Assembly (NCBI GenBank): GCA_017506865.1
Contig: JAFCMP010000068.1
Location: forward strand, 744,001 to 808,000
Origin: Tribonema minus
Lineage: Eukaryota; Sar; Xanthophyceae; Tribonematales; Tribonemataceae
Direction: 5' to 3'
Length of the DNA: 64,000 bases
How positions within the stretch are numbered: the first letter of the stretch is position 1; each line of letters starts with the position of its first letter. Below the pieces are notes generated by a model. It did no database searches, was not told where the DNA came from, and worked only from the letters and a program-made list of their open reading frames with translations. Below, piece by piece: positions 4,921-54,700 of the stretch. Position numbers and translations under genes: made by a program.

Positions 4921-5740
4921 GAACAGGCGGCGGCGCAGCAGCTCGCGACGGGCGATGCCGCTGACGGGCGCGCTGACGGATGAGCGCGAGGCGCACGCGC
5001 ACAACTTCATTCCCTAACTTCACATCCCAGCCTCGGCCATCACATGCCCCCACTTCAACTCTGCACCGCACTTCAAGTTGACGCACCTCGTCCCCTCGTC
5101 GAACAGGCGGCGGCGCAGCAGCTCGCGACGCGCAATGCCGCTGGCGGGCGCGCTGACGGACGAGCTCGCGGCGCACGCGCACAACGTCATTCCCTAACTT
5201 CAAATCTCATGCGCACTACAAGTTGACGCATCTCCGGCCCCTGGCCCCATCGAACAGGCGGCGGCGCAGCAGCTCGCGACGCGCAATGCCACTGGCGGGC
5301 GCGCTGACGGATAAGCGCGCGGCGCACGCGCACAACTTCATTCCCTAACTTCACATCTCAGCCCCGGCCACCACGCACACCCTCACTTCAACTCTGACAT
5401 AAACTTCAAGTTGACGCACCTCGGCCTGTGCACGCCCCATCAAACAGGCGGCGGCGCAGCAGCTCACGACGCGCAATGCCGCTGGCGGGCGCGCTGACGG
5501 ATGAGCGCGCGCCGCACGCGCACAACTTCATTCCCTACATTCGCATCCCAGCCTCAGCCATCACAGGCCTGCCCCCACTCCAACTTTGATGCAAACTTCA
5601 ATTTGACGCATTCCGGCCCCTGTGCACGCCCCGTTGAACAGGCGGCGGCGCACCAGCTCGCGACGAGCGATGCCGCTGGCGGGCGCGCTGACGGACGAGC
5701 GCGCGGTGCACGCGCACAACGTGGGCCTGCTCGTCAAGCG
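4921..5740 (+). repeat. Five serial copies of the head of the first recognised Slo exon
   Basis: The landmark GAACAGGCGGCGGCGCA occurs at 4921, 5101, 5252, 5441 (as AAACAGG) and 5636, spacings about 180, 151, 189 and 195 bp. Each copy carries an AG acceptor-like site, a Gln/Ala-type stretch, an ATGCC (GTGCC-like variants in some copies) and GGGCGCGCTGACGGA. Only the last copy runs on into the transmembrane-coding exon. Between copies lies a conserved TTCATTCCCTAACTTC-type spacer. Confidence 0.85.
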
Positions 5741-8700
5741 CGCGTGGCGGCGCGGGTGGCGCGCCGTGGAGCGTTTCGCGGAGTGGTACTTCCAGACGCG
5801 ATGGGTGCAGCTTACGTCGCTGGTGCTCACGGGTGAGACCTTCACCAACCCTCATTTGGGTTGATACCATCCCTAACCCTACCCCTCCCCCCTCCCCTTT
5901 GTGCTTACAGAACTTGTTTTTGTGGTTAAAACAAGATCCGTCATTGTCATGTGGTATGATTGGGGTTGGTGGTGGCTGCAGGACTGCTGTCGCTTGTGGA
6001 CACGGCAGTGCCTGTTGTCGTGACATCAGCGCCCTTGGACGACTCTGGCACTGCATGACACTGACCCGCGGTGGACAGCATCTTGAAGGATTGTCGCATT
6101 GCGAGTTCAAGAGCGAGAACACGGCGCAAACGGTGCGGCCAACACAGCCAGTGCTCACAGAGTTCACCTTTGTGATTAGTGTGGATCCATCGTTTATAGC
6201 TCCCAAGACTGCTGTCGCAGTGGCTGCCAGCAGAATCTCAGGCTGTGCAGCAGCAGCAAGGCTGCAGCAGCAGCAGCAGCAGCAGCATCGGCAGCAGCGG
6301 CTGCAGCAGCACCAGGTGTGCTTGACTTCTTAATGCCGCTCTCAGCGCCCCGAGTGCACTGTTACTACGCACCGCCAATGCATCATGCCCCCTGCACGCA
6401 CAGGTGCATGCCAAGTGTGTACCGCACTGCACCTTGCCGACGGCGCAGCACCGCTCTCTGCACGCATAGTGTTTCGGCAGTACGGACGCCTGCTGCCGCC
6501 CTTAGGGTCAGGGATAGAGCTGCTTCGATTGAGGAGTAGGGTGACGGTTAGGGTCAGGGTAAGGCTGCTACGTCAGAAGTACTCGTGAACTCAGAGTGTG
6601 CCTTTGCACCCCTTGACCGAGTTGTTCCACACCTGCGCTGCTTACGTGTCATGCGGCGGCAACGGCTGCCCCCCTTGCCCCCCCCCCCCACCACCACCAG
6701 CACAAAGACTGCCCCCTCCTCCCCTCCCCCTTACACGCCACCTCCGTCCCCCCCCCCCCCCCTGACACAGTGCTCAGCTGCATCCTGTACGTCATCTTCA
6801 CGTACTTCCGCACGTCGACGAGCACCGAGTACTCGGACGTCAACGGCAACCCCTTGCCCGGCCACGTGGACGACCCCTACCACATGGACAACATCGCGAC
6901 GTGGATCCAGGAGTCCATCACCATCACGTTCGTGGTGGACTTTGCGCTGTCGCTCGTCATCGCGCCGAGCGCGCTGCGCTACGTCTTCAGCTGGCCGGGC
7001 CTCGTGGACATCCTGTCCATCATACCGATCCTGGAGCCCCTCAAGCAGGGCATCTACGTGCTCAGCTTCACGCGCTTCCTGCGCCTGACCAAGGCCTTCA
7101 CCATCCTGCGGCAGCACAGGTGAGTACGATCCCCCCGCCCCCCCCCCCCACCCCCCCCGGCCCCTTGCGTTGCTGCAGTCGCTGGCCTGTAGCACACTGC
7201 GACCCCTGAGCACCGTTAATGCACGCCTCCCGCGCCACCATCATCGCTGACTGCTCGCACTGCGCAATCGTCTCTGTACTGCTGACACCCCCACCCCCCC
7301 CCACCCTCCACCCCCCCACACACACCCCACTCGCCCACACTTTGCCCCCCCCCCACACACGCACCCTCGCCCCCCAATGTGCAGGCTGCGCAAGGGCGTC
7401 CTCGCCGGCGAGGCGGCGGACCTCTCGTTCAACGTCTTCTTACTGGGCGTGAAGCTGGCGGGCCTCATCTTCATTGCGACGTCCATCGTGTACGCGCTTG
7501 CTGAGGCACCCAACATCAAGGGCTTCTCGTACATGGTCGACGACACCGTCGTGCACCAGATCGTGGAGTGGCACGACGCGTTCTACTTCACCATCGTCAC
7601 GCTGTCCACCGTGGTGCGTACTTGAGGTTCAAGGTGGTCCATCGCTGTGCGACAGTGGCGAAGTCGTGGCTTTGTGCGGGTGGTCTGTTACCTAAAGTCG
7701 CTGTGTCTGTTGTTGTAGCCACCTGTAAGGCCCATTTGCTTCTTCATCATCGTCACACTGTCCACCGTGGTGCGTAGTTGAAGTGCGCGCATGCTTGGAA
7801 GTGCGACAAACTGACAAATGTTGTTTAAAAGTGATTGTTGGCGCGCATTAGGGCACTTCTATGTGATCACAGGATAGGTGTAGATTTCTGGCAGCAAGCT
7901 TGACATCAACCATATGATTTTGAACTAAAACATCCAAAAATTTACAGACTTTTTTGTTGGCTTTTACACTAATTTTTGGTTTGGGTTCAAGGCGCCCCAA
8001 TCCAGATGCAACACACAGCGGCGAGGTTGTGGCCTTGTGCGAGCTTTGTTGTCTGAGGCCGCGGCGTCTGTTTCTGTCGCCGGCAATCCTGTAAGGATGT
8101 CTCTGTTCTGCGATGCCCTCTCATTGACGCGTTGCACCGCCGCTGCGACGCCGTTTCCGCCGCAGTGCGATGCGAAGGTGGTGTTGGATGCATCTAAGGT
8201 TTGGGGCCTTTTGCATTGTCTACCAACTTCATTCATGTGCCGTGGGCACTGCACGCGCCGCATACAAGCGCATAGCCCCCCCCGCCCCCCACCCCCCCCT
8301 TCTTCCAGGCAAGGCTGCGGTCGACATCACACCTAAAACACTAAAACCCCTAGATCCCGGTCACAAAATGGCTTCTCTCACCGTGACGTCGCCACACCAG
8401 GAATCCTATGCCACAGAGTGCAGCGAGCCCCCCCTCAAGTACCCCTCCCCCCCCCGTCCCCCCCTTAACTCCCCCCCCTCCCCCCCCCGCCCCCCAGGGC
8501 TACGGCGACATCACGCCCAAGACGTGGCTGGCGCGCATGGTCATGGTCTTCATCATCATGGCGAGCTTCATCATCATACCGCTGGAGGTGGCGCGCCTCG
8601 CGGACGCGTACTCCAGCGTGCCGCGCTTCCGCGTCGCGTACAAGATGGCGGGCAAGGCGCTGCACGTCATCATCGCGACATCGTCGGGAGGTGGGTACGG

Positions 8701-11700
8701 CGGTGCCGCCGCTGGTAGTGTGGTTGCGATGAAAGCGTAATCTGTGCAAGGGGGTGACACGGACGCTACCGTGCTACCGACTTAAAAACTTCAAGATGGC
8801 GGGCAAGGCGCTGCACGTCATCATCGCGACGTCGTCGGGAGGTGCGTGAAAGTTACTGTTTTTATACGGACGCGGCGGCGATGCGTGTGTGGCCTGTCGC
8901 GGGGGATTATACGGACGCAACCTTTTGGTCGTGCACTTCAAAAGGGGCGGTGCTGCGAAGTCAAACTTTAAGATGGCTGGCAAGGCGCTGCACGTCATCG
9001 TCGCGACGTCGTTCGGAGGTGGGTACGGCGCCGTCGCCGCTGATAGTGTGGTTGCGATGCGCGTGTAGCCGGTTGGGGAGGATGATACAGGCGCGCAATT
9101 CAAGAGGTTCGTTCCAAGAAGGGGCAGTGCTAAAGACTCTCAAACTTCATGATGGCGGGCAATGCACTGCACGTCATCATGGCAACATCCTCGGGAGGTG
9201 CGAGACGATCGCTGCGGAGGTTGCCGCTGATAAGGACGTGGCTGCGATGCATGTGTAGCCCGTGGAGGGGGTGGGGGTATGAGCGCAACCTTCTCATCGC
9301 GTGTTGTCGAAAGGGGAAGTGCTGCAGACTCAAACTTCAAGATGGCCGGCTAGGCGCTGCATGTCATCATCGACCGCTGCATGTACCTTTTCAGCTACTC
9401 TGGCAACTGATGGTGGCCCGAAACCTGCGCGCAGACAACGGCACGTGCGCGGGCTTCGAGGCGGAGGCGCTGCGCCGCATGCTGGAGGACATGCGCCACG
9501 AAGACCACGGCCCCAAGGGCAGGAACGTCTGGGTGGTGGTGAGTGCCTGCCTCTGCCCCTAGCCTTCTTCGTTACTCTCCTCACATTGCGCTTTATCTTC
9601 GATCTGTGACTCTCCTCACATGGCACCAAGGACCACGGTTCCGAGGGCAGGAATGTCTGGGTGGTGGTGAGTGCCTTACTCGAGCGCGCAAACAGCGCCT
9701 GTCATCGGTGACTCTCCTTAGTTGACTAGGTGGATTGCATGGCAGGCTTCAGACAAATGTGAATTGCATGGCAGGCTTCAGACAAATGTCGATGCAGCCA
9801 TCGGCGCAGCAACGCCTGAGTTGCGGTGAGTGACTACCCTGAGCCCAACCCCGAGTAATGCACCACTGCAATCGGCGACTCTCCTCACGTGGCGCTCTAA
9901 CGCCGCTCATCGGCGGCGTTAGAGCCCACGGTCCCGCACGCGCCTCCTCGCTGCGTCGCCATGCCCCCCTAGCGACGAGTGCTGTTGCCAACGCGCGTAA
10001 TCCTCAACGTCTCCCATGACGTCAACCCAAGCCCTATCCCTGCAGTCATCTCAGGCCGCACGGCCGCGTCCATGTTGACCGTTGTTGCGACTTGTCCTCA
10101 GTAATCTTGATCTTGCGACACGTCCTACCGTTGTTGCTTCAGCGATGCTGAGCTGCCGCGTGCTGCGCTGCGGGTGTTGTCGCCAGCGGGGGTTTCCTGG
10201 CCTAGCAGCTCGACGATGACCGTGAATTGGCAGCTCAGTCATCAGCTGACATACTCTCAACTGCTAGCAGCAGCTGCAGCATGTGTGCAAAACTGGTGGG
10301 CTGATGCCGCCTCTGCTCTCTCACGCTGCTTCCGCCGCTGCCGCCGCCGCCGCCTCTCTGCGCAGGTGATGTCGCCGGCGGCGCCGAGCGCTGCCGTGAA
10401 GAACCTGCTGGCGTCGCCGCAGTTCAAGCGCCACACGCTGTACTATCGCGGCAGCGTGCAGAACCCGCTCGACCTCGCCGCCGTGCGCGCCGAGTTTGCC
10501 GACTGCGTCATGCTCATGCTCGACAAGTGAGTAACTCAGGGACTCTGATACTTGACTCAAGTACTCGCCGCTGTGCGCAGAGGCCGCAGAGTTTGCCGAC
10601 TGCGTCATGCTCGACAAGTGAGTGCGGGGTCGTGCCGCGTTGCTCAGGGACTCTAACTCTCGACTCAAGTACTCGCCGCTGTGTGCAGAGTCGCGCAGAG
10701 TTTGCTGACTGCGTCATGCTCATGCTCGACAAGTGAGTGCTGCGTTGCCCCGCATTCATCGCTCAGGGACTCTAACACAGTGGGCGTCGCCACATTGCTC
10801 AGAGACGTTGATTTTAACTCGTGTACTCCCCGGCGCGCCCGCCGCGTTTTCAGGCGTCGTCACGTTGGTAAAAGACTCTGGTGCTCGCTCAGGTCAACGC
10901 TGACTCTCATGTCCGTACTCTGCAGCTTGGGCTGGCAGAATGCGCAGTGTGTCAGCAGCAGCAGCAGCCGGAAATAGCGCTCGCTGTGTGCTGTTCTCGT
11001 CACCGTGCTTCTCTCAAACTTTGAAGTAACATACAACTTGTAGATAGGGGGATGACGCGTCTCACAGCCACTTGCCTCCCGCGCCGCCTGCCCCTCAGGG
11101 AGGGGGGCCGCACAGGCGCGGCGGCGCAGGCGCAGGCGGAGCAGGTGATGCTCAGCACAATGGCGCTGAAGCGCTACCTCGAGAGGGCGCCGCTTGAGCC
11201 TGAGTCAGTGCTCGACAAGGTGCGCGGCATGCAGCGCCGCACGGGGCGGCCCGAGGGCACGCGCATCATCGTCGTGGCGCACGGCACGCGCGACCGCGCC
11301 GGTGAGCACTGCTGCTCATGTGCTGCAATGCTTCCGACTGACTGAACGGTGGTGCTGCACCTTCCCTGCTGCTCTGCCATGCAGCGTGCGTTTACCTATC
11401 GCACATTCAGATAATCGTCGTGGCGCACGGCACGCGCGACCGCGCCGGTGAGCACTGGTGATGATGAAGAGTTTTGCAGGCGGTAGCGTACGATGAACGC
11501 AGAGGCTGGCCTGTACGCGTCGCTGCAGACGCCGGCTGCGGGCAGCCTGGAGGCCAAGGCTGTTGCATGGTCAGACGTTCGCGTGAGTGCTCTTGCAAGA
11601 CCTGACGTGCGACCGCGCCGGTGAGCGCTGCTGCTGATCTGCTGCAATGCCCCCAGCCGCCTGAGTAGTGGTGCCGCAGCTTCCCCCCTCCTTTGCTGTG

Positions 11701-14456
11701 CAGCGGTGTGTACTCGCCACTAACTCAGATGTGAGTACCCTTGTCTGCGGCAACATCGTTGGTGCCACTCATGCGTCTCTGCAGGCCTACACCGTGCTTC
11801 AGCTGCTGTGCACGGCCGCGTTACCTGCTGCTTCACCGGCTCCTTGACACACCTGACGCCCCCTCCCTCACACACCACCACCACCCACCCACCCCCCACC
11901 TCTCCCCCATTTCGCCAACCGCGAGGCGCAGCGCTGCCCCACACCTGACACCCCCCCCCCCCTTCCCCCCCCCGCGCCGCCCCCCCCCCCCCCGCGCAGT
12001 CCTCCAGGCGTGCGACGTGCACGAGGTCCTCTGCCGCGAGGAGCTCAAGCTCGCCATGCTCGCGCTCGCGACGCTGTGCCCCGCGTTCCTGTGCTTCGCC
12101 ATCAACTGCCTGCGCGCGAGCTCGCACCGCGGCGACGTCGCCTCGTCGCAGCGCGCGCGCCACCAGTTCCTCACCACGGGCCATGTAGACTTCACGCGCA
12201 GCCTCGGCGCCGGCGCCGGCGCCGGCGCTGGCGCCGGCGCGAGCGTGCGCATCAGCGACGCCGGCAGCGTGCGCGAGGACCGCTTCGGCAGCGGCGGCGG
12301 CGGCGGCGCGCCACACTGCGCGCCGGGCTGGCTGGCCAGCTACCTGGAGGGCGCGTCGCACGAGGTGAGTGGGGGGCTCCGCGGTGGAGGTCAGCGCTCA
12401 GCAATTGACAGCAATTGATCTCAGCGCTCAGCAGTAGATGCACAATGCTCAGCAAGGCGTCCGCGCTCGGCAGTGGACGTCAGCGCCCAGCAGCAGAGTC
12501 AGCGCTCAACAGCAGTAGCAATAATGTCAGCGCGTGGCGCTGAGCAAGCGAGGGCAGCGCTCAGCACTTGAGGTCAGCGCTCAGCAGTGGAGGTCAGCGC
12601 TCAGCAAAAGGAGGCAGCGCTCAGCAAAAGGAGGCAGCGCTCAGCAGTAGATGTCAGCACTCAGCAAGGGGTCAGCGCTCAGCAGAAGCGAACAGCGCTT
12701 GGCCTTGGAGATCAGGGGATGGGCGGGCAGGGGGGGGGGGGGAGGGAGGGGGGGGGTAGCCCTATTGGCCGCCGATGCGCCTCCGCTTACCAGCTGCAAG
12801 GATATCATAGCATTGGCGTGTCATGCGCGGCGTTTGTCTCTTTCCAAGAGTGCATGCGTACCTGCCCCGATGAGCCTGCCTGTCGTGCCGTGCGCGCATG
12901 CAGCCGGTCAAAATCGCCCCTCTTGTCATCGGCACGTTATGCCTCCTAGATTGTGCTGCCGAAACCTACCCTCTTTCACGCCACCGGGGGTCAAACCTTG
13001 GTAGGTGCTCCCCTTGAATGAGGCCTAGTTCAATTCTTGCCGTTTCACTGAGTGTTGAAGTAGGTGCCCCCCATTGAATGAGGTCTAGTTCAAGTTTTGC
13101 CGTGTCACATGTTGAAGTTTTACAATGGCGTCATGCATGCCCTCTGCGCACGCAGGTCTACACCATGTGGCTGCCGCTGGACAGCAAGGGTTAAATTAGG
13201 CTAGTTCAAATCCTACCGTGTCGCTGACTGTTGAAGTTCTACCTCGGCGTCATACATGCCCTCTGTGCGCGCAGGTGTACACCATGCGGCTGCCGCTGGA
13301 CAGCAAGGGCGTCGTGCACGGCCTCACGTTCGCGGAGGTCACGCAGCTCCTCTACGCGCAGAGCAGGGGCGGGGTGAGTCATCGAGTTGCTGAGTCATTG
13401 AGTCATGGCCCCACTAGGCATTGCAATTGTTCCCGGCCTCACGTTCGCGGAGGTCACGCAGCTCCTCTACGCGCAGAGCAGGGGCGGGGTGAGTCATCGA
13501 GTTGCTGAGTCATTCAGTCATGGCCCACAAGTTACGCAGCTGCTCTACGCATAGAGAAGGGGCGGGGTGAGTCATCAAGTCACTGAGTCATTGAGTCGTG
13601 GCCGACCAGGCATTGTAATGCTGCAGCACCGCTCATGCTTTGGTGTGCCGGTGGATTGGTGTCCGCATGGCTTGGCGGCACTTGCAAGTGGAGTGCCTGC
13701 ATATGGAGATTGTGTTGTTGAAGTTGAGTGGCCATTCAAACACGAAGTGGGGGCGTTGTGAGCTGGCTCAAATGGAGGAGAGGCATTTGCTTTAATTCGA
13801 GAACGCCCTGTACAATTGCCTAGCGGCGTACACAACGCAGCAGCATCATTGTCACATCGCAGGGTTTGTGCCTCTTTGTCAAGTGTATTCATCATGCCAG
13901 CACCACACGGCACGTGTCAACTCGTGGGCATGCAACGGCTGTACCTGCCATCATGCTCCAACACTCTCACAATACTTGTGTCTGCATACAACAGTCGGAT
14001 TGGCTACCATGCCGGCCTGTAAATAAATTGCTGCGCTTACAGCACTCTCAGTACTGCAATGCCACACGCCGAGGAAGGCCACGTGTTTCTCTACACACTC
14101 ATGCCTGTGAGAGCACACATGTGTACATTTTTTTGTGCTGAGCACTGTTTCCGCCACCGCCGCGCAGGTGCTGCTGCTGGCGGCAGTCGTAGGCACCATG
14201 GACTGCGGCCTGACGATGCCCGAAACCATGTTCTTTGGCAGCGCGCGCCAGGTATGTATGTATACGTACACTCGCCAGGTCCATAGGCATGCATGATCCA
14301 CTTGCACTGGCGTCGCCGATCTAGCAGGGCCGTGTTGCGTGCTCTTGTTACAAGCCTGTCTGCTGGCGGCGTGCACGGCGTCCCGGGCGCTTGCGACCGG
14401 TGCGGGCTCTGAGTGTTGCCGCACGCGCGAGAGCTGCTGCGTGCATGCGTGCGAGC

Positions 14457-14490
<34 letters not shown>

Positions 14491-17421: not shown

Positions 17422-17469
<48 letters not shown>

Positions 17470-22751: not shown

Positions 22752-22765
22752 GCGGCAGTGTTTAC

Positions 22766-22923
22766 GCAGCCGAATAACGGCCGCTGCGGTGGTGCCACGC
22801 AGCACGAGCAGCGTCCGTCGCTTTTGCCCTCTTTGCGAGCGCAGCAGTCGAATGATGGCCACTGCAGCGTCGCCGCGGAGCACGAGCGGCATTCGTCGCT
22901 TTTGCGCTTTTTGCGAGCGCGGC
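22766..22923. repeat. Tandem duplication, 2 x ~79 bp, in the channel 3' flank
   Basis: GCAG.CGAATAACGGCC..CTCTTTGCGAGCGC is followed immediately by a diverged copy ending CTTTTTGCGAGCGC. Confidence 0.75.
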
Positions 22924-23737: not shown

Positions 23738-23785
23738 AGCGGCGGCAGCGGCGGCAGCGGCGGCAGCGGCGGCAGCAGCGGTAGC
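23738..23785. repeat. GGCAGC hexanucleotide microsatellite
   Basis: About seven GGCAGC(GGC) units. Confidence 0.85.
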
Positions 23786-37864: not shown

Positions 37865-39757
37865 GAGTTTACTCTTTGCCTGCAGCTGCAAGGTGTTTCT
37901 GTGAATATAGTCAATGTGTATTGATGACAATTTTTGAATGAAGAAGGTTGGTGGGCCTGCGCGCTGCACTTTGGTAAACCACACAACACAGATGGAACAC
38001 GCGCACAATCCCCTGTGCTTTTTTAAGTAGTGCAAATGGTTCGGGGGCCTCATTGCAGACTGCGCTGAGCATTGCCACAAGCAGCTCTAGGTCTGAACCG
38101 ACTATGAGTAATCTGAACTGTTGACATGCCATGTGCAGCTTTCCCCAGTCGTCGCTCACTCTGTTCTTTGTTGTCGTTCTTGTTGTTGAACGTCTTTGTC
38201 GTTCACTTGCTACAGTCACATTTGCTTTTTTACAATGAGTGATTCAGTCTTGTGCAGGTGCGCTGTTGAAAAAGGAAGCAAGTTTAGTACTTGCGTTGAC
38301 CAGACTTTGATGGCAGCCCATAGGCGCCAGAGAGCGGGAGAGGAAGTCTAGACTCACTTGCTGGTCGCAACCTGTCTCAAAGCATCCGCATCTGGAATCC
38401 GTCAAATGAAATAACCTGTTCATTATGCGTGCTGCACTTGCAGCAGCACCGCTGATGCTTTGCGCATTTCATTACTGCCATGCTCTGCATATGCTCTTGC
38501 TCGACTTGCATGCATCTGCGGGAACATCGGGAAAACTAGTCCTGCGCTGTTCTTCGTCATCCGTGTCTGTCTGATAACATGTCTTGAAGGTGCATGTTAC
38601 GCGAGATGGCTCATGGTCCTCAGCCACACTGATCCTGTGTGGGGGTGTGTCATTTCTGTTGTGTAAATTGATAGAGATACGAGTTGTGGCTGGCAGTGGT
38701 CTCAGGACTTGTCGCATTCGCTCCAAGCAAGAGTCTACTGTGCCTTCACGCATGTCAAGCACTGTGCGCTGTGTTGATCCAGTGCTGACTCGCTTCAATG
38801 TAATAGCCATCATCAGCCCCATCACAGGTGCTCATGGCTGATGCTGATGTCAAAGGAGTGCTTAGACCATTCAAGTTGTTCGCATGGTCTGTCGCCATGT
38901 TAGCAATGTGCTTCAGCGCAGTTTGTGCCGTTTGTACTAGCATCAGCTCAATTCAACATTGAGGGCTGCATTTCAGTCCAAAGTGCGCAAATGTTGCCCC
39001 GCTTTATCCCACGTGGGCATTGATAGATGAGTACGCCATACTAGCAGGCAAGCAGAATGTGGAGGCAATCTCTTCGCCATGATACACGCAAATGAAATGC
39101 AGGCAACCATAGGCAAAGCACAGGCACCGTGCAAGTTGCAGCTCATGACAAGCACGGGTGACAAGTGAAATACAGCGCGCTGATGAAGCATGCTGCAGAC
39201 ATATTCTGCAGCTTGTAACATTGCCACAGCGCTATACGCCAATGACTGAACGCCTGACCTGCATCTTGCACACAAATGAAAGCAAGATCGGACGCGCCGA
39301 TGCATGAAATACCGCCCCTAGACCAGCCGCCCAATATGATGGCGAAGACTGTCCGAGTGCCTCAGTGACCGATGACACCCTAAAACTTGCCGCTGAGTGG
39401 CGGCAGCGCTTGCGAGCAATAGTGATCGGTCTGCGTACGAGCGAACACGTGTGCCCGCTGCGATGAGAAAAGAGAGCGAGTACGCGCCGGCAGCACCAGA
39501 ACCGCTGTCCGTTGTGATCGCCGAATAAACCACACGCTGCATGCGGCGTGGCGCAGCGCCCCGCCGCTGCGCGATTGCGCATGCTAGCGCACGAGAGTGC
39601 TGCGCGCGGTTTACTGTACACAAGGCTTGTACACCTAAATCGCAATGGATCGGACTGAGACGGGCTGTCGGGCCCCCGATGCGCCTGACAGTCCATTCAC
39701 CAGCTACAACAGTTGCTCGGAAGCAGGTGACTTGTTGACGGTTCCATGACGGGGAGC
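37865..39757. other. Convergent spacer between the Nudix gene and the exchanger gene
   Basis: Both flanking genes end here (tail to tail). Open frames on the minus strand near 38472-38825 and 39232-39696 have no recognisable motifs. The two 3' UTRs are expected here. Confidence 0.5.
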
Positions 39758-42700: not shown

Positions 42701-45700
42701 ACTCACGATGCGACGCCGCCGCGGTGGCGACTTTAACTCACAGTGCAACGCTTGCCCCCCTCAATAGGTTGGCTGAGCTGCCGGCTTTGCCCACGTTCCG
42801 GGTGCTGCCGGGGGTCACGGGGTCCGCCATGTTACGTCCGCGCAGCAGCGAGTTCCTCTTGAAGCTGGGCCGGCGCTGCTCAGCAGCGGGGGGGGGGGGA
42901 GGGGCACTGCGTTAGCAATGGTGACGCTGCTGCTGCTGCTGTTGCTGCTGCAAGGCGCACCTGCAGAGCCATGAGCACACCACGCGTCTGGAGACAACAG
43001 TGCACGTGTGTTTGAGACACTGCGGGTGTCGCGTGCTGCATGCAGCTGCAACCTACAGCAGTACCTAGGGGCGTCGGCTCCGCTGCTGGCGCTGCTTTGC
43101 ACAAGGAAGGAGCCAGATGCACATTCTGCGGCGCGTTGGCGCCGCTGCTGGCACAATCACGGCGCCTCGGCAGCAGCGCACCACCGCAACGCCGACGCAG
43201 CACAACGCTCAGCACCAGCAGTAGCAGCAGCAGCGCTCACCTGCGCGCGCAGCGTCGAGTGCACCGACGACACGCTCGCGTTGAGCGAGCCGCCGGCACC
43301 CATGCTCATCTGCACGGAGCCCCTGCGCAGCAGCCGTGCGGGAGCGCGCGCGGCGCCGCCGCCGCCAGTGGCGGCAGCGGCGGCGCCATCGGTGCTGCCG
43401 GCCTGCCGCACCTGCGTGCCGGCCACCGGCGCCGTTGACAGGTCTACGGGGGCCGTGGCATCGGGAGGCGCGCATTCATCGATGTCGTCGTCTTTGATGA
43501 GCACCTGCGAACATGACAGTGTGTTTGGAGGTGAATTAACGGGGGGGTGGTCCAGGGGCATTGCATCCCAAGCAGAGGTATGTATGTGCTGGCTACGGGG
43601 GTCATGGCGTCGGGCGGCGCGCGCGCATTCGTCGATGTCGTCGTCCTTGATGAGCACCTGTCACCGCAATAGATAGCGAACGTGAAGATGATGGGGGGCA
43701 GGGGTTGGGGAGCGGGGGGTTGGGGGGCGAGCAGAGTATGAGCAGAGGCGTAATACGGTAGACTTGTGGTATCAGCAGCGGCAGTGCTCAGATGTCGTCG
43801 TCCTTGATGAGCACCTGCGACAATGACGGTGTGTTTGAAGGTGGGTTAACGAATGGGGGGGAGGGGTGTCGAGGGGCATTGCATCCCAAGCAGAGGAATG
43901 TATGTGCTGGCTAAAGGGGTCATGGCGTCGGGCAGCGCGCGCGCATTCGTCGACATTGTCGTCCTTGATGGGCACCTGTCATCGCAACAGGTAGCAAATG
44001 TGAAGATGGTGGTGGTGGGGGGGTGGGGATCGCGCAGAGCTGCAAAAGCGTTCACACCCGGGGCGCAGTTATGTATATTCTGCAAGGAAGCAGTGTCACG
44101 GACTAACGAAGATGCTGTGCAATGCTAGCCGATGATAAGGGACGTCGGAACATGACAGCCGCTGGTAAACACACATATTGTGCCGCAGGATGCCGATAAG
44201 GCAGGTGTGCCATTCGCGTGCTGGCGGTGTGCAATGCAGACTGCGGCACCTCCTTGCGCAATGAAAAAGTGTGGAGTGCAAGAGCGCGGAGCGCGGAACT
44301 GTTATCATTGTGCAGGTTGTTCAAGGCAAGTGTCAGACACCGTGCAGCAGTGTTCACAGTGGTGCCAGGGCGTCTTGAGATGCGTGATCAGCCTTGCAAG
44401 GTACCGTGCATGGATCAGAAGTCGCCATGCAAATTGCGCTGGTGGCACCACTGCCCATCCCCGGTGCGGGGTATGCACTGAGTCTACCTCGAAGTACTAC
44501 AATAGGTGTAGCTCGGCACGCACCACGCTGCCCCTGACAATGTAGTAGCAGCCCAGTCCAGCGCGGGCGCCCTTGTCGCCCTTGCGCATGAGCTCCACCC
44601 GCCCAACGTACTCCTGCAATCAGACAGGACATGGTGACAGCAGCTGAAGCTGAGCGCTGCTGCTGCATTTGAGTGCGTTTGAGAGGGGTAACTTTGCCAC
44701 GAAAACTTGCCCGAGTACAGAACTGATGCCAAGCATGCATGGCAAGAGCACGACGCGCAGCTGGCGGTTGCGGGTGTCATAGAACGAGCCGCTTTCACAG
44801 GTGGCATCCGATGCAGCAAGGCTACCCTGTAAGGTGCACATACATGAGTGTTTCGAAGGGCTTCTTTGCGTGTGCATCCGCCATGTGCACACTCAGAAGC
44901 GTTGAAGCTGCTCTATGGCTGCGTTGGTTCGACTGTTGGCGTGGCAGCGCTCAACTCACACTGATGCTCAGGACAGGCTGGTGAGTCTGCAATCATGTGT
45001 AATTACACTATTCAAGTGATGTTTGTTTCTCAGGTCAATGCTGGCGCAAAGATCCTCAACGGACAACACATAGCACGACCTCGATCACATTTGTCACGGC
45101 CTTGGTGTTGCAACTTCAGGAATCACATGCCAGCTCACACAGGTGCAGGAACTCAGCACAAGCATGCCACAGGTGCTGCAAACACGTTCGTAAGCAAGAG
45201 GCCATCACTGTGGGGGCGTTTTCGTCAGCGGCACTGGCACCCACCTTGGGCTTGACGAGACCCAGACTCACGACTTGCTCCAGCTCGGATGAGTTCAGGA
45301 GGTGGAGGAACTCTACACGCGCTAGCGTCTGCAGCAGCGGCGCCTTCCTCTCAATGGTGGGGTGGAAAGGCACCGCTTGCAGGCCAGCCGTGATGCCCTG
45401 TCGAGTTGCGCATGGATGAAAAGAGCAAGGCACCAACAGGGAATACAGTCAGAGTTTGCCAGTCTGTGAAGTGAACAGGCCTGGATCGGCTGCAGTCAGT
45501 GACCGCCTGTTGTGAAGTCGACATGACATGACACACAGGCCGCCAACATGGCGCACAGCTGTCCCGGTGGTCTGGTACGGACATGGTGTACTTGCCACTG
45601 GTAGGAGGCTGCTTACGCAAATGTTGCGGATATATAAAGGGAGGCCACAAACGGCGGTGGCGGCGAGGGGGGGGGGGGGGGGGGGGGGGGGATCGGCAGA

Positions 45701-48700
45701 GTGTCAAACTGCTACACAATGCTCGAGGGCAAAGGGAGCAAAGCGATGGCAGCTGTTATAGCAAGCCGCCACATCAACGATGAGCTTCAACAGCCGTGGC
45801 CACATGAAGGTGCGCACCGAGGTTTCACGTTGGTGCCAGCCCTTCAGAGCGCTGTCACAGCCATCACCCACAACCGGCGCGCTGCGCTTGCACCTTCAGA
45901 GCGCCTCTCTCGCTTCCTGGCTTATGGAGCACTAATGATTGCACGATTCTGACTTGTTGAGCGCTGAGTGCAGTCATCAGTGCTCAGGGCTGAGCGCAGT
46001 GCGCGCACCTTCTCCATGAACTCCGCCTCCTTGGTGTTGATGCGCCCCTCCTTCTGGAGCTTCTTGATGTGGAAGTGCGCGGTGAAGAGCATGGTGCGCG
46101 CGGCCATCTGCGTCTTGATAGAGCGCGCCTGCAGCGCAATGGGATGGGGAACAGGGGGTCGCTCTGGTGAGTGGACTTGGATTCACATGAGACTCAGATG
46201 TGCATACTGGTGAGTAGACTCGGACTCGCGACTCAGACAAGCGTACAGAGCCACGACCTCACGACCATCTGGAACGTACATGAACCATAGCGCAATACTG
46301 CTTGCGGCACACAGCGACGTAGCGCAATGCATGCCTCAGTGCTATGCTGCTCAGGGACTCATGAAGCCCTAGAGACGCGCCGCGAGCTGCCAATCTGCAT
46401 GCTGTGCAACCACCGCATGTGTAGTACAGTCACATGGCGTCTACTGATTATAATTGTGTGACAATCCTCTTCAATTGATTTGTATAGTAATAAGCATCAC
46501 TGTGTACTGCACGCGGCGCTGAGCGCTGTGCTGATGACCGCGATGCGAACGTCACTGCAACACTGCAATATTGCACCATATTTTCATACATTTGCACCTA
46601 CACCTGAGCATCATACCTACACCTGATCATTGCTCCGGCGCAACATTGTGCAATGCGCAGGCCGCGCGACTAGAGCTGCACTTACGCCAACGGACCGAGA
46701 AAAGCAGGATGCGCACACTTTACCAAATTGTCGCACTGACAATGTTGCAATGATGACGATAGGCCAGGCACACATGCAGCCCCCTCCGCGCATGCTGCAT
46801 GAGGACTTGCAAACAGCACTCAATGTGCGTATACCTATTGTATAGAAGTATCAGCCAGGTCCGTACATACCTGTGCAGGGTTGTCAGCTAGAAGCTGCAG
46901 CAGCTCGCCCTCTGCCAGCTCCACCTGCGCCAACAAACAGCGGCACGAGGCGCGCACGCAAACGTTGAGCACTGCAGCGTTTGACATGCAGCCAAGCGAG
47001 CACATCGCACTTCCAGCCATTGCTGCCGCTGATGTGGGAACGCGCACATGCCATGGCCCATTTGGCAACAAAGGTGTCGTGCGTACAGGCTCGCACCACC
47101 CAACGTGTCGTCTGGTGCAAAGCGCTACTGTACCAACGGCCAAAGCCCGCGTTCCATGCCTCGCAAGAGAGACAGCGACGCCGCGCTGACAATGCTCTGC
47201 TTGCTGCAGGAAACGGTGGCACAGAAGGCGCGTGGACAGGGCCTTGAGCGTTGTCACGAAAGCCCAAGATGCTGAGCGTCATCGCAATCATAGACCTGCT
47301 AATCGTGATCGTCGCGGATCATCCTGGCCTGGTGGTGCGCGTCGCGCGCACTGACACGCACACTGAGCATCACCACACCCACGCACCTGCTGGTCGTGCT
47401 CATCGCGGATCATCTCGGCCTGGTGCGGGTCGCGCGAGAGCAGCTGGCGCGTCTGCAGCGCGGCGCGGTGCGCGCTGACAAAGTTCCACACGATCTGCAT
47501 GACAAAGGTGAGCTTGCGGTGGAAGAAGTGCGCGTCCCACTTCTTAAGGGGGCCGCGCAGCAGGCGGCGCCACCCCGCGCCGTTGCCCCACACCAGCTGC
47601 ACGGGGTATGGGGGGGGGGGGGGGGCATCACGACATGTGAGCGTTTAGTGAGGAGTGCGCTGGCTCCGTGTCGTGCACATCTTTACTGATTGCTCATGAT
47701 CATCGTTCGCCGTCTGTGGAGACAACGGCTGTATCCCTTGTGAACACACGTCCGCTGCATCCCCTGCAGTGCAAAGTTATGACTGAGCCACGCGCTGGGG
47801 CATGTATATTGCGCCAATGTGCTGACCAGGCGTCACAGGCACGTGCTGACTGCACAGCTTTGCGGAGATGAAGCATCATCAATGAATGGTGATAATCTGC
47901 GCTGGCTCAGCTGCGCATGCGCTCGTAAGTGCGCAGCGCTCAGCATTGTGCACCCGACAGGCGGTTGCCGTGACGGAATGCGCCTGCTGCGCACTTTTGC
48001 CTTGCACCAGCTGCTCGAGGCCAAGAGCGCAGAAAACTTGCAAGCTGAGCAGAGATTTCGTGCTGCAACGATGCTCAGCATATGGCGCAAAGAGGTTCTT
48101 AGCTGGGGTGCGCTACCCCCGCCATTGCGCCACAACAACTGCAGCAGGGAGGTGGCTCGCCGCATGTGTCATTGTTGTGCAGCACTTGCGCCTATCCTCA
48201 AAGGAAGCGCCTAAGCAGTTGACGTCGGCCCCCGCCGGGGCCTATCAGCAACTCCCCCCCAGAGGTGGAATGCATGACAACATAATTACTGGTTGTGCGT
48301 AACTAAGTCGACAGGCATCTGTGGTAAACACAGCTCTGGACTGTGCAAACACTGGATAACACAGCGCTGTACTGTACAAACACTCGACCGGACATGGCAC
48401 GCAGCGCTTCGACAACTCACCGAGAGACGCGTAAACCACGACGACCGGTTGTACTTGTCGGCGATGTACGCCCAGCTGTCTAGCGCAGCGCCCTTCTCTA
48501 CGCGGTCCTCTGCGCTGTCGACGCTCTCCATGAGCACCTTGATGCCGCTGCAGGGCGACACGAAAATGGCACCGCCGATAGGTATACGAGTAGGTCAGTT
48601 CGACGATATAGAAGTAGCATGCAAGTGCATGGAGAGATATGCCTTCAATTATTCACTGGACGGTTGGATGCAGCAAGAAGAGGTGGCAGGGCATGATACA

Positions 48701-51700
48701 GAGGCGCTATTTGTGCTCAGACTCTCTCTCCATCAGCGCACAGATGCCGCTGCAGCAGACGCGCTTGAAGTTGTTGCTTCATTATCGCGACGGATTGTGA
48801 CGACGAGTGCGTAGCATGAAGCACGGCGCGCGGCCAATCTTCAGCGCAGGCGCACTCTGTGCGCAAGAAGACGCTGCTGCACCACTTCCAGTGCGAAAGC
48901 GGCGCGTCGTCGTGCGCGCCGCCATCACAGCGCGCCGGCCTTGCGTTTACTGGGCCTCTCTACGCACTCACACCAGCTCACTCAGGAGCAGCATTAGCTT
49001 ACACTGTACGAGAGGGCGTGCCAGCACTCGCCGCGCATGAGCATAAACCTCAACACCAATGAACGCGCAGATGACGCACCTGCCGGTGAGCCGCCCAAGC
49101 GCGAAGACTTCAACAATACGCATAAATTCAACACCAACACACGCACGCGCAAGCGCAGACGACGCAACTGCCGGTGCGTGCACGAAGACTTCAACAATAC
49201 GCATAAACTTCAACACCAACACACACGCGCGCAAGCGCACACGACGCACCTGCCGGTGAGCCGCCCGTGCGCGAAGAGCTGCTTGTACTGCGCGCGCAGC
49301 GCGTCGAGGTAGCGCATGCGCCACTGCATGAGGCGCTCCGACTCAAACACGTCGCACGACGCGGCGCCGCTGCCCGCGCCGCCCGCCTCCGCCCAGTGCG
49401 GCGCGGACGACGTGCTGGATATCTCCGTGTCGGTCACGCCGCTTTCCTTGAAGGCCTTGGGCACGCCGTTGCTGCTCGCAACAAAGGGCGCAAATGTGGA
49501 AGGCAAAAAGAGTGAGCTAACCGACGCCCATCGAGCGACCAGAGCGCCAGTCGAGCGGCCAGAGCTCAGGATGAAGCAAAGCAGCGAACCTACGTGACCA
49601 CCAGCATGTGCACTGTTACGGACGATCATTAGCAAGAACCACCCAGCGCAACATCCAACAAGTACCAGCCACACGGCAGTTGCGCACACCAATCATCCGA
49701 CACCGCCAAACACCCTGAACACCCCCATCCGCATCAACTCACAGTCCGTTGGCCGGCAGCAGCGAGCGCTTCCGTCCCTTGCGCGGCGCGTTGCTCAGCA
49801 TGGCGAGAGGGGTCACATCGTCGATCCCCCCCTGACCCCCCCCATTGCCCCCCCCCCCCTCCTCCGATGACTCGTCCGTGGGGTCGTCCGTGCTGGCGCC
49901 GCCGCCGCTGCTGCCGCCGTTGCCGCTGCCGCGCCAGCCCTGCGAGCGCGAGTCGCACATGCGGCTCTCCAAGTAGGCGCGCAGGCTGAGGCCCTCCAGC
50001 TCCTGCGACATGTAGCAGCGTGGACGCAGCGGCTCAGATTACAGGTCACAGGAGCACCAGGAGTCCAGCACAGGCTGAGGCTCCCCTGAGGCACATGCTG
50101 TGGACACAGTGGCTCAGATGACAGTTGCACATGCGGCTCTCCAGGTAGGCACGCAGGCTGAGGCCCTCCAGCTCCTGCGACGCGCGGCGCGGAAACACCG
50201 GCTCAGATGACAGTTACAGGTTTCAGGGAGCACCACACACACACAACAGGGGAGCTTCAAGAGTTGAAGTGCACCAACACGAGCGCACTGTGGAAAGCGC
50301 ATGAGCGCTGTTGCAATGTGCTGTTGACAGCGAGTCCCAGTGCGGCTCTCCAAGCAGTCACAGGGGCTAAGGCCTGAGCCGTCCCTCCGACTCTCAAGAG
50401 TTGCGCCGTGTGGAGGACGTGGTTCATAATTGATTTGTGACAGAGTCTGTTTGCCTTTGGAAGTGTGAGAGGGAAAGCACGGGTCAACATGTGACCCTAG
50501 ACACATGAGCCGAGGTCTGCAGCTCGTGCGCGTTCACAGCATCGCTTTGTTCAAACAATAACGAAGCATAGCAATCAAATCATTCACATGGAGCGGAGGC
50601 ATTGACAGCATATCAGGCACGTACGTTGCCATCTATACTCAAGTAAATGTATGCAATGCGATCATGTTTGTTGTTGTAACAACTTATCAGCATGTTCAAT
50701 CATGTGCAGCTGTCATGTCAGCTTTGTGACCATCAACCAAGGTGTGGTGCAAGCGCTCGCCGCAAAGTCCACTGAAAGCACCAGCCAACTCTCTGAGCCA
50801 CTGCTGCAACCAGCAGCAGTCATGGCAAGTACAGCATACAAACGCCGACATGCTTCAACCCACTACTTCAACAACACACTTCAAGTGCGCATCACAGCCA
50901 CATTGCGCATCACTGACCAGATCCGGAATGGACTCGGCGCGCGGCCCAAATGCGCGGGCGTGCGCACGCCACACGGCGCGCAGCCGCTGTGGCAGGTGCG
51001 GATACTTGGCGTCCGCCTGTCTGGAGCGCAGCTGCATCCAGCTGAGCACTGCCCTCCAAAAGCCCGCCGCCTTGTGCAGGTCGTCGCGCTCCTCCAGCCG
51101 CTTGTCTGCTGCTAGCTGCGCGTGGGAGGGGGCAAGGACGTGGTGCTTTGATAAATTGAGTGCACCCCCCTGCAAAGCGTCAGTAAGAATGCAGCTCAAA
51201 CAAGTTAGTTCGCAGGTGATTGTAGCTATCCAGCTGAGCACTGCCCTCCAGGACCCCGCCGCCTTGTGCAAGTCGTCCCGCTCTTCCAGCTGCTTGTCCG
51301 CCACTAGCTGCACGCGTGAGGGGGCGGGTATGTGGTGGTTGCACCCCCCTTCAAAGTGTCAGTGGGCCTGCAGCTCAAACATGATAGTACAGGTGTTTTA
51401 CCGCCGCACACCGCTTGTAGCACCAAACTTGTGTACGTCGTCGCGCTCCTCCAATTGCTTGTCCGCCGCAGCTGCGCACGCGAGCCAGCATGTGTTTCGA
51501 CACTGATGCACAAGAACCAGGTGCAGCCGAGCACAAGCTTCACAGAAAGGGCGCCCGAAAACTTCATGCCACGGTCGAAAGCCTTGCGGGCACAGTGAAC
51601 TCCACAGCTGCAGCCAGCTGCGCACTGCACTTCAGCTGCGCAACACCCTACTGCACGCCACTGCCTACCTTGCGCACCACGCTTATGCACGCCACAGCAT

Positions 51701-54700
51701 ACATACTCACCTCTTCCGCGACGCTCGTGACCCCCGTGTCCGCGCCGTCCCCCTCCTTGTGCGTCCCCCGCACCTTCTCCGCGCGGTGCGCCGCGGCCAC
51801 CACATCGTCCACCTCCCCCTCCGCCAGCTGCACGTGCCCCGCCATGATGCGCATCCAGTACGTCTCCGCGGTGAACACGGGCAGGTAGCGCCACACCGCC
51901 GTCCAGTCGGCCTCTGCGAGGAAGTTGTCGCCCTGCGCGCGGGAGCGTCGCCGTTGCATACAAGTTCAAGTTCAGGTCCACATGCAACACATGATGCGCA
52001 TCCAGTACGTCTCCGCGGTGAACACGGGCAGGTAGCGCCACACCGCCGTCCAGTCGGCCTCTGCGAGGAAGTTGTCGCCCTGCGCGCAGGAGCGTCGCCG
52101 TTGCATACAAGTTCAAGTTCAGGTCCACATGCAGCACATGATGCGCATCCAGTACGTCTCCGCGGTTGAACACACGCAGGTATGTAGCACCACACCGCGG
52201 TCCAGTCAGCCTCCGCCAGGAAGTTGTCGCCCTGCGCACGGGAGCGTCGCCAACACATGCAACTTGAATCTCAGGTTTGAAATCGTTTCTTTCTATCAAC
52301 TTCAACTTTAACTTCAAGATTGATTCTCTTGTGTCGTGCAATGGAGCCGCATCAGCCGTGCAGTTTACCACGAGCGTAAATCGCATTGCTGTGCCAAATG
52401 CTGGCGGGCACTGCTGCGGCGCCATCAAAAATTTGCCGCCTGCGTCAGTGAGCAGCAGACATCCCAAAGACATAAGGTGGACAACGTGCCACACCTAGCC
52501 TCAAGCAGCACACTTCCAAATCAGAAACTTGGCTGCATCGGGCCAGTGCGACACCGTCTATGTGTTTTGACCCCAACCCTGCCAGATGCCGCCCAGGAAC
52601 CGCTGGACATTGTGCGGACGCCTGGTGGGATTGCAGCAGACACGTGCACGCATGACAACACTGGACGCTGACTGACCTTTAAACGCTCCACGTCGCCTTA
52701 ACCCTAACCCTCACCAGAACCGAACCCTACATAAGCTGAGCACTGCACTCACCTTGAAGCGCTCCACATCAGCCTGCAGCGAGCGCTCCAGCGACAGGCA
52801 CCCGCGCCCAAACTGCTCCGTCTCCGCCTCCGAGACGCGGTCCAGGCGCAGCCCCTGCACCAGCATCTTGGTGGTGCTGCCCTGAAGCACCAGGGTCATG
52901 ACCGCGATGCCGCTCACCAGGAACACGATCTTGTCCCTGATGGACCGGTCGATCTGTGGAAAGAGCGGGGTGAAGTGAAGGGTTAGTCACAGGTAGCCGT
53001 ATGAAGAGTAGGTGGATGCCATGAGATGCAGCCAAAGCCGCCACTGGCGTGCGCGTTGGACGGTGCGAGCGTCGCATCTGCTCCATATTCAGGACGCGTT
53101 TCATGCAAGTCAGAAACTGGTCACTTCAACTTCAACTAGCAAAGTTCCTCAAGAGGAATGTGCGCGCCGTGGAGGCTTGTACATAGCTTTGCGCCCCTTG
53201 GCATTAAGTTCATGCAGGTTATGAAGGGTAGGTGTGTAGAGTGAGCATAGCACGGCTCAGCATAACAGCCTCACCTCATCCACATCATCCACAATGAGCG
53301 CTAGCACCAGTGCAACGGAGCCCCGCAGCCCGCTGTGAACGAGCAGCGCGCCCTGGCGCCAATTCAACCTGATGAGGCAACATGTGTAAAATTGGAAGTT
53401 ATAGTTGTGATGCTGGGGTCATGTTTTGTCATCGCTGCCAGTGAGCAGCAGTGGTGGCCGACCACCAAATTGTAATGCACAAGTCATGAATGTCATTGCT
53501 GTCGGTTGTCATTGCTACTGGCGAGCGGTGGTGGCGGTCGATGACAAAGTCACAGGGTTAGAGTAACCTAACCCCAACCTGGATTGACAGCACATGACTC
53601 CATGTGCGTACAGCAGCGTGCGCACTGTGGCAGGTATGCCAGTGCCAACAGTGTTGATACACCAGTTTGGAACACCTGACCATCATGTTACCAACCCAAA
53701 AATCAATTGCAGTGGCCACAGAAGCAGCCCCAGCGAGACCCTGATCATTGCCTACTGAGCAATGTCGCAGCAGCTGGAGTATGCTAGTTCACTTGCAGCG
53801 CTCATTGCTGAGCAAAGCCTATGACAACCAAACCAAACCAGGCTTCAAAATGCAAGGGGAGCAACAGCATCATGTGACATAGTGAGCCTTCCCAACCTCA
53901 AGTCAGTGACGCTGCACGTTCTGAGGCTCTCACTTGTAGCCCGTCTTGCTGAGCAGCGGCCAGGAAAGCAGCACCACAATCAGCCTCACAGCGTACAGTG
54001 CCAGAAACAGCAGCAGCAGCGAGCCCCAGTCGCTTCCGGTGATCCTCCTGTGCTCCGCCACCGTCTGGCCTCTGCAGAGTGCGAGCAGAGCAGCAGTAGA
54101 AGCAGTGGTGATGCTCAGGTGGGGGGTGGCCACCAGTGACACGAACAACACAGATGTGATGGTGATGAGCAGCTGACCATTTGCAAGCTGTGCACATGAG
54201 CTCAGCGTTGCAGACGTTTGGATGCCATGTACTTACATGCCTGCAGGAGAGATCAGACGTGGACATGGCAAGCACACCAACACCAAACGCTGGACACAAG
54301 CGTTTGCTGCAAGAGTTGCGGCAGCCTCTGAGGTAAGATCAAAAGCTGCAGCACTGACAGTGGCAACGGCGTACATGCTTCAGTGCTCTACACAGCTCAT
54401 GTATTGATGTTAATAACCATCAACCGTGCGGGTTGCGTTCATGGGCCTGACCATCAGCGGCAAAAGTCCACCTACTGCTACATCATTAAGCCATGACTTC
54501 AATAACATGGTGTTGACAGCTCACATCAAGATAATGCCAGCAACGAAAAACACCACCGTGTTGGCCAAGAAGTCCAGCAGTATCCAGAAGTCTGTCATAA
54601 ACGCCTGCACGCTGGGCGACACGAATGGTCTGCCCTGCTTGCGCAGCGTCAGCCCCATTAGGACCACTGCCATGACACCTGACACCTGCAGGTGCAATGA

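What the first reader, a model, noticed from the sequence alone, without database searches (positions are those of the whole stretch)
4921..52258. Serial copies of exon edges with their splice sites fill the introns, spaced like nucleosomes
In the channel, DUF1336 and exchanger genes, on both strands, at least sixteen exon edges are followed (donor side) or preceded (acceptor side) in the adjacent intron by one to four decaying copies of the same edge plus its splice site and some flanking intron. Hand-measured spacings cluster at about 140-195 bp: 180/151/189/195, 151/177/179/190, 182/179, 179/163, 153/157/160, 147/152, 192/165, 171/209, 164, 140. A few are shorter (83-116) or odd (250/125). 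This is not ordinary tandem slippage at one site: it recurs at unrelated exons, always anchored at an exon-intron boundary. Inference: a process, perhaps repair or replication templated over one nucleosome length, repeatedly duplicates exon-intron boundaries and may lengthen introns or seed new ones. I know of no described system exactly like this; introner elements are transposon-like and share sequence between genes, whereas here each family is private to its exon.
Basis: partly seen in the sequence, partly recalled or inferred. Interest (0 to 1): 0.92.

Follow-up and report, generated by a model that had tools for sequence, protein, structure and literature searches.

The report
Decaying exon-edge duplications inside algal introns
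Introns in this algal gene cluster carry old partial copies of the neighbouring exon ends, most simply explained as short local DNA duplications that splicing ignores and mutation erodes, so they show how introns grow rather than a newly discovered copying machine.

Summary
The repeats are real. In the window, 20 of 150 modelled exon edges have one to four degraded same-strand copies in the adjacent intron (37 copies), plus two edges read by eye. Near repeats are almost all direct: 115 direct, 3 inverted in 264 kb. In 314 kb of this photosynthetic, 158 Mb genome plus one fetched paralogue I kept 58 edges with 90 copies. Copies evolve as non-coding DNA: they differ from the exon at 9.6%, 9.5% and 16.5% of codon positions 1, 2 and 3. 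A paralogous exchanger gene shares no array at 10 compared edges, so arrays arise repeatedly.

The special interpretation is weaker. Of 115 pairs, 61 are at edges, 28 intron-internal, 21 intergenic, 5 exon-internal. Spacing fits flat 60-200 bp event sizes weighted by the chance of hitting an edge (KS p=0.33). The 200 bp ceiling matches patch-repair tandem duplications in rice (PMC7971508). What remains is an excess of edge-spanning events (39 observed, 26.0 expected) and clustering on this contig. Best reading: repeated short repair-type tandem duplications across junctions, tolerated because the outer splice site still works. New variant of a known kind.

The parts
4803..5720 (+). Acceptor-side array: four upstream copies of the intron end plus first exon bases of the exon ending at 5832; start-to-start spacing 180, 151, 190, 194. 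The acceptor itself is read by eye, the gene model starts at the ATG at 5670
   Evidence: gene model mis-read this array as minus-strand exons
7583..7784 (+). Donor edge of the channel pore exon (7385-7613) and one copy at +156
   Evidence: joined pore exons score Ion_trans_2
8641..9372 (+). Donor edge 8690 with four copies at +151, +328, +507, +697
   Evidence: genome search returns only itself
9503..9676 (+). Donor edge 9538 and one copy at +128
10474..10776 (+). Donor edge 10526 with two copies (+97, +206)
11265..11705 (+). Donor edge 11301 with two copies (+146, +319)
13074..13609 (+). Exon 13275-13373 with copies on both sides: acceptor copy (119 upstream) and donor copies (+115, +193)
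14920..15811 (+). Donor edge 14968 with four copies (+187, +437, +563, +738)
16036..16301 (+). Acceptor edge 16277 with one copy (164 upstream)
18498..18965 (+). Donor edge 18594 with two copies (+182 at 95% over 103 bp, +361); the first copy is preceded by an AG and modelled as a 96 bp exon
19327..19543 (+). Donor edge 19357 with one copy (+110)
22766..22923 (+). Acceptor edge 22844 with one copy (78 upstream)
31056..31622 (+). EDR2_C gene: donor edge 31098 with two copies (+179, +342); the intron part is repeated too
   Evidence: domain integrity
31758..32168 (+). EDR2_C gene: donor edge near 31823 (read by eye; the model runs on to 31963) and copy at +141; the copy is followed by a stretch at 31999-32113 that matches other contigs, and the intron part resumes at 32113
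   Evidence: exon end 31823 used
41227..41436 (-). Exchanger gene: acceptor edge 41287 and copy 137 upstream
43444..44032 (-). Exchanger gene: acceptor edge 43504 with three copies (153, 310, 471)
47272..47436 (-). Exchanger gene: donor edge 47386 and one copy (91)
49041..49277 (-). Exchanger gene: donor edge 49249 with two copies (82, 170)
49951..50220 (-). Exchanger gene: acceptor edge 49985 with copies at 172 and, weaker and outside this stretch, 381
   Evidence: absent at the homologous paralogue edge
51036..51484 (-). Exchanger gene: acceptor edge 51115 with two copies (192, 357)
   Evidence: absent in paralogue
51843..52276 (-). Exchanger gene: acceptor edge 51932 with two tandem copies (147 nearly intact, 299 more diverged)
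   Evidence: absent in paralogue L035

Best explanation
These are recurrent short (about 60-200 bp) local tandem duplications that happened to span an exon-intron junction. Shown: direct orientation, local clustering, neutral decay of the copy, exon-constrained original, independent origin in paralogues, nearest copy on average more similar, size ceiling near 200 bp. Weakly indicated: little microhomology at young junctions (4 interpretable of 11 examined, one of them at an exon edge). Inferred: the molecular route, most likely two nicks on opposite strands within about 200 bp (for example excision-repair patches), fill-in of the overhangs, and end joining, as described for rice and mammalian cells. 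A duplication across a donor leaves the first donor, and one across an acceptor leaves the last acceptor, attached to the full exon. The mRNA is therefore unchanged if splicing keeps using the outer site (inferred). The half-exon left in the intron then drifts. Repetition at the same edge builds arrays and lengthens the intron. Secondary insertions, and possibly conversion from the exon, may explain copies whose intron part no longer aligns.
For: Near repeats are direct and local: 66 near and 2 far in the window; 115 direct against 3 inverted near pairs in 264 kb. Codon-position differences 132/1380, 131/1376, 226/1373: positions 1 and 2 equal, position 3 raised, as expected if the copy is free and the exon constrained. 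The aligned intron part diverges more than exon positions 1+2 (231/1658=0.139 against about 0.095); this is less than the twofold expected, and the alignments lose the most diverged intron. Splice dinucleotides are not specially kept: GT 45 of 52, AG 30 of 32. 0 of 10 compared edges shared with the paralogue; 3 arrays window-only, 5 paralogue-only, 2 edges with neither. Spacing fits flat 60-200 bp sizes times edge-hit probability (KS p=0.33, n=79). Rice tandem duplications are enriched at 50-200 bp, fall to 5% of events by 200 bp and are attributed to adjacent-nick repair (PMC7971508, passages and section 7). Rice insertions also include non-tandem copies from within 200 bp and ectopic copies (review PMC7407515, passages), like the non-contiguous copies here and the one on C507. 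Fill-in plus NHEJ makes small tandem duplications in mouse and human cells (PMC8355091, passages).
Against: Edge-spanning events exceed random neutral placement. With duplicated material removed from introns: 39 of 64 against 26.0 expected, P=0.0002, and at age <=0.05, 9 of 12 against 4.0. With present-day introns the expectations fall to 18.2 and 3.1. Against simple random placement (edge share 0.354), age-matched counts are 11 of 14 (p=0.0012) at age <=0.05 and 26 of 36 (p=8e-6) at age <=0.1. Of 34 gapped edge pairs only 9 have a clearly homologous gap segment (z>3; 1 of 34 in each control), and several with 90-97% exon identity have none, which simple duplication plus decay does not predict. 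Spacings show a mild hump (binned chi-square p=0.049), and the sizes of non-edge pairs, reweighted, are somewhat shorter than edge spacings (p=0.07). Density is uneven: 52 of 240 edges on the C68 block against 12 of 267 on the other blocks (before removing copy-exons), unexplained by a uniform mutation process. Junction evidence is thin. No reads, RNA or related strain were available.
Confidence: 0.7

Rival explanations
1. A boundary-targeted duplication process: nicks, pauses or R-loops at exon-intron junctions (transcription, splicing or nucleosome edges) make junctions true hot spots, so copies are generated there preferentially.
For: Excess of edge-spanning events of 1.5-2.3-fold with collapsed introns and more with present-day introns; 11 of 14 youngest events at edges against a random share of 0.354; nearest copy more similar; mild hump of spacings at 120-180.
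Against: 28 intron-internal and 21 intergenic pairs. Donor and acceptor edges are both hit (33 and 25). Spacing needs no nucleosome term. Intron copies may be under-counted by low-complexity filters and indels (not measured).
Confidence: 0.18
2. Preferential preservation: gene conversion from the constrained exon repeatedly refreshes the exon part of old copies, making edge copies look young and abundant.
For: Several copies with 90-97% exon identity have no alignable intron part.
Against: Where both parts align, intron divergence is only about 1.5 times that of exon positions 1+2, not the more than twofold that refreshing the exon part would give, though diverged intron is lost from the alignments. 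For the 31758 family the displaced intron part is explained by a stretch that matches other contigs.
Confidence: 0.25
3. Functional cassette or alternative exons: copies are kept as usable exons.
For: The copy at 18681-18776 has an AG, a GT and a length of 96 bp, modelled as an exon; several other copies were also modelled as exons.
Against: Pooled copies show no coding constraint: positions 1 and 2 change equally; the farthest copy in the 8690 array carries an in-frame stop (sequence). I did not count how many copies have both splice sites.
Confidence: 0.04
4. Introner-like mobile introns or transposons whose target duplications are the exon edges.
For: Some introns do contain short dispersed repeats.
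Against: The four-copy array at 8600-9400 matches nothing else in the genome search; only 2 far repeats in the window (not examined).
Confidence: 0.02
5. Assembly artefact.
For: No reads available to check.
Against: Most copies carry private substitutions (near pairs 66-100% identity), and they recur on both strands, several contigs and a paralogue.
Confidence: 0.01

Closest known systems
Patch-repair (adjacent-nick, fill-in plus end-joining) tandem duplications, described in rice
   Same: Direct local duplications, mostly under 200 bp with a sharp decline there, occasional non-tandem local and ectopic copies; I saw passages and section 7 of PMC7971508, passages of PMC7407515 and of PMC8355091
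   Different: In what I saw they are described as genome-wide insertions between varieties, not as serial arrays across exon-intron junctions; the enzymes were not tested here
Intron gain by tandem duplication across an intron-exon boundary (potato RdRp gene)
   Same: The duplicated segment crosses an intron-exon boundary (PMC4974935, passages)
   Different: There a new intron formed in a single gene; here the original edges still fit the protein and the copies sit in introns at many edges
Rogers-type AGGT exon duplication and internal gene duplication
   Same: Tandem duplication involving splice signals (as described in PMC4974935 passages)
   Different: Needs a duplicated exonic AGGT creating an intron; here a pre-existing junction is copied into an existing intron
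Introners
   Same: Sequence repeated in introns
   Different: Introners are groups of similar introns across genes (PMC9860276, passages); here each family stays at its own exon, with one ectopic copy found

Membership tests
Short repair-type tandem duplications | Direct orientation, adjacent or local | tested here: met
   66 near and 2 far direct pairs in the window; 115 direct and 3 inverted near pairs in 264 kb
Short repair-type tandem duplications | Length mostly below about 200 bp | tested here: met
   81 of 90 spacings <=210
Short repair-type tandem duplications | Copy contiguous with the original | tested here: inconclusive
   Several arrays are head-to-tail tandems, but among 34 gapped pairs only 9 gaps align at z>3
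Short repair-type tandem duplications | Little or no microhomology at the junction | tested here: inconclusive
   Overlap of 1, -2, 2 and 1 bp in the 4 junctions I could interpret of 11 examined; one of the four is an exon-edge pair, on contig C40 with a 375 bp unit; the others gave -22, -4, -32, +30, -79, -72 and one failed anchor
Short repair-type tandem duplications | Dependence on nicking, fill-in and end-joining enzymes | not testable with these tools
   needs mutants
Intron gain by boundary-crossing tandem duplication | Duplicated segment includes an intron-exon boundary | tested here: met
   58 edges, 90 copies; GT scorable in 52 and AG in 32
Intron gain by boundary-crossing tandem duplication | A new spliced intron results | not testable with these tools
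   no RNA data; domains join correctly at original edges
Introners | Similar intron sequence shared by unrelated genes up to both splice sites | tested here: not met
   8600-9400 unique in the genome search; only 2 far repeats in the window; other introns hold short dispersed repeats not tested up to their splice sites
   40 of 79 in 140-195 against expected share 0.48, p=0.65; mild hump in bins, p=0.049

The most novel reading that the evidence does not exclude
Exon-intron junctions in this alga are genuine hot spots for 60-200 bp duplications, perhaps because transcription, splicing or chromatin edges place nicks there, making junction duplication a main engine of intron growth and a running supply of decoy splice sites that the cell must ignore.
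Probability: 0.2. Interest if true: 0.8.

Novelty: new variant of a known kind. Interest (0 to 1): 0.52.

Why it matters
The arrays are a fossil record of intron growth: many datable, independent events caught at single exons, with the constrained exon as an internal reference. They turn 'how do introns lengthen, and how does splicing tolerate decoy half-exons?' into a testable question in one genome. If the residual edge excess is real, it would point to a link between transcription or splicing and DNA duplication.

Tried and rejected
Nucleosome spacing: rejected as unnecessary. 'Always at boundaries': rejected. Functional exons: rejected in bulk by codon positions. Introners: rejected for the tested array. 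Tandem duplication with simple decay as the whole story: kept, but 25 of 34 gapped pairs do not show a clearly homologous gap. Organism: not named; 92 LHC-family matches show a photosynthetic alga; the 18S search did not complete; one literature search did not identify it. Prior reports: searches did not list a paper that I recognised, from titles and abstract starts, as describing serial exon-edge copies in introns; only open-licence PMC text was searched, so absence in print is not shown. Papers not held: PMC4020087, PMC2791625, 10.1073/pnas.1603823113; what I say of Vaughn and Bennetzen comes from citing papers.

Caveats on counts: gene models are from my own Viterbi-trained model (the earlier run crashed), with no RNA support. 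The 150 window edges include model exons that are themselves copies, and some were not scored because of the entropy and length filters. The 314 kb sample was chosen near contigs named by the channel search, plus C40, and is not random; 124 kb of it is the C68 block around the window. Hits with low 3-mer entropy were dropped. In one search, 14 of 72 edges were removed: 5 from a spurious minus-strand model over the 4.9-5.5 kb array and 9 from model exons that are themselves copies. One search contains a few self-overlapping alignments (8641, 4803, -23788), so I use for rates. One search uses only events with spacing <=230 inside modelled introns (64 events). The paralogue table uses five exon pairs; a sixth pair (window 53286-53371, L035 4590-4675) was left out because its exon was not modelled in L035, which has a repeat there (4614-4783/4783-4969). 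In one search only 40 of 106 candidates were scored. The junction set was picked by me.
Full report
What is there. The window is G000:C68:744001-808000 in a 158.18 Mb, 554-contig genome with 92 LHC-family matches, so a photosynthetic alga. My gene model, trained on 314 kb, gives 338 exons and 326 introns with mostly GTGAG-type donors and GCAG acceptors. Joined exons from the original edges recover domains: EDR2_C over its full 213 positions (104.5 bits), Na/H exchanger (121.2 bits) and Ion_trans_2 (56.4 bits). The EDR2_C and channel joins cross introns that hold copies, for example 7613/8498 and 31098/31679, so the edges I call original there are the ones the protein needs. A NUDIX match in exons at 35-37 kb is below its cut-off (16.7 against 21.1 bits).

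The repeats. Self-comparison of the window gives 66 near direct pairs and 2 far ones. Over 264 kb there are 115 near direct and 3 near inverted pairs; in the window the one near inverted pair is a 23 bp palindrome match. In the 314 kb, 33 of 221 tested donors and 23 of 200 tested acceptors have a copy on the intron side at score >=22, against 1 and 0 on the opposite strand. After removing 14 doubtful edges of 72, 58 edges with 90 copies remain, including 7 edges from the paralogue L035; 20 edges and 37 copies are in the window.

What the copies are. Comparing each original with its copies by codon position gives 132/1380, 131/1376 and 226/1373 differences. Equal change at positions 1 and 2 with extra change at position 3 is the pattern of a free, non-coding copy compared with a constrained exon. 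The aligned intron part differs at 231/1658, more than exon positions 1 and 2, in the direction expected when both sides drift, though less than twofold. GT is intact in 45 of 52 and AG in 30 of 32 copies where it can be scored. The nearest copy is more similar than the farthest (0.902 against 0.866, 20 families, p=0.012), so new copies tend to arise next to the exon.

A natural experiment. A paralogous exchanger gene lies on the same contig (L035). At 10 homologous edges of five exons, three have arrays only in the window gene, five only in the paralogue, none in both and two in neither. The detectable arrays therefore arose after the gene duplication, separately.

Is it tied to boundaries? 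Of 115 non-redundant pairs, 61 are at edges, 28 intron-internal, 21 intergenic and 5 exon-internal. Random duplications that leave the mRNA intact must lie in introns or span one edge. Simple random placement gives an edge share of 0.354 among these, against 11 of 14 events at age <=0.05 and 26 of 36 at age <=0.1. A stricter null, using each intron with its duplicated material removed, expects 26.0 of 64 events at an edge and 39 are seen (P=0.0002); for age <=0.05, 9 of 12 against 4.0. With present-day introns the expectations are 18.2 and 3.1. So the excess is about 1.5-2.3-fold under the stricter null, not absolute. Possible causes are a real bias, refreshing of exon parts by conversion, or under-detection of repeats in low-complexity introns.

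Is the spacing nucleosomal? 81 of 90 spacings are <=210 bp, mean 142, SD 34. A flat size distribution from 60 to 200 bp weighted by the chance of hitting an edge fits (KS p=0.33), and the 140-195 class is not over-filled (40 of 79, expected share 0.48, p=0.65). A mild hump remains (binned p=0.049). The same weighting predicts that non-edge repeats are shorter, which they are (mean 120 against 145), although the reweighted match is imperfect (p=0.07).

Contiguity. Several arrays are true head-to-tail tandems. Among 34 gapped edge pairs, the gap aligns to its expected partner at z>3 in 9, against 1 in each of two controls. In the 31758 family the missing intron part reappears at 32113, beyond a stretch (31999-32113) that matches other contigs. 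The rest are unexplained and could be conversion, deletion, secondary insertion, or non-tandem templated copies such as those reported for rice within 200 bp of a break (PMC7407515, passages). One edge also has a copy on contig C507 with no other channel exon found by tblastx in the 6 kb fetched.

Where. On the C68 block 52 of 240 modelled edges have copies; on the eight other blocks 12 of 267 do (Fisher p=5e-9). The paralogue L035 has 8 of 16. Two more C68 pieces gave one pair (L036) and none (L037, no genes modelled). This heterogeneity is strong in my sample, which is not random, and unexplained.

Mechanism. Of 11 junctions examined, the four I could interpret show overlaps of 1, -2, 2 and 1 bp; only one is at an exon edge. 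Rice tandem duplications fall from 70% of events to 5% by 200 bp and are attributed to repair of adjacent nicks (PMC7971508, section 7). Fill-in by Pol alpha-primase and end joining makes small tandem duplications in mouse and human cells (PMC8355091, passages). I take this as the most likely route; it is inference here. A boundary-crossing tandem duplication in potato is published and made a new intron (PMC4974935, passages).

Verdict. Real, neutral, recurrent, and partly enriched at exon edges; best read as known short duplications seen in an unusually rich series. New variant of a known kind.

Noticed in passing
window 15218-15264 and 62034-62131: Short repeat present in opposite orientation at two window sites and matched on 22 other contigs at 80-97% identity (40 of 106 candidates scored), inside an intron of the channel gene; looks like a small dispersed element.
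   Followed up: partly
window 7915-7982: 68 bp in an intron identical to a place on contig C129, with partial matches on C12 and C24: a dispersed repeat.
   Followed up: no
window 31999-32113: Intron stretch with 84% match on contig C223 and shorter matches on C547, C509 and C512; it lies between an exon-edge copy and its displaced intron part.
   Followed up: partly
window 12421-12685: Minisatellite of about 20 bp units in an intron; parts of it match several other contigs.
   Followed up: no
window 18550-18643; L034 2937-3046: One exon edge with its donor and poly-G intron start also occurs on contig C507, with no other channel exon found in the 6 kb fetched.
   Followed up: partly
window 18681-18776: First copy of edge 18594 has an upstream AG and is 96 bp between AG and GT, a possible in-frame exon in the making.
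   Followed up: no
C68 block against other blocks: Edges with copies are about five times as frequent on the C68 block (52 of 240) as on the eight other sampled blocks (12 of 267); cause unknown.
   Followed up: partly
introns, for example window 31180-31220, 18625-18680, 51960-51990: Motifs like TTGAAGTT or AACTTCAA recur in introns near copies; seen by eye, not counted against chance.
   Followed up: no
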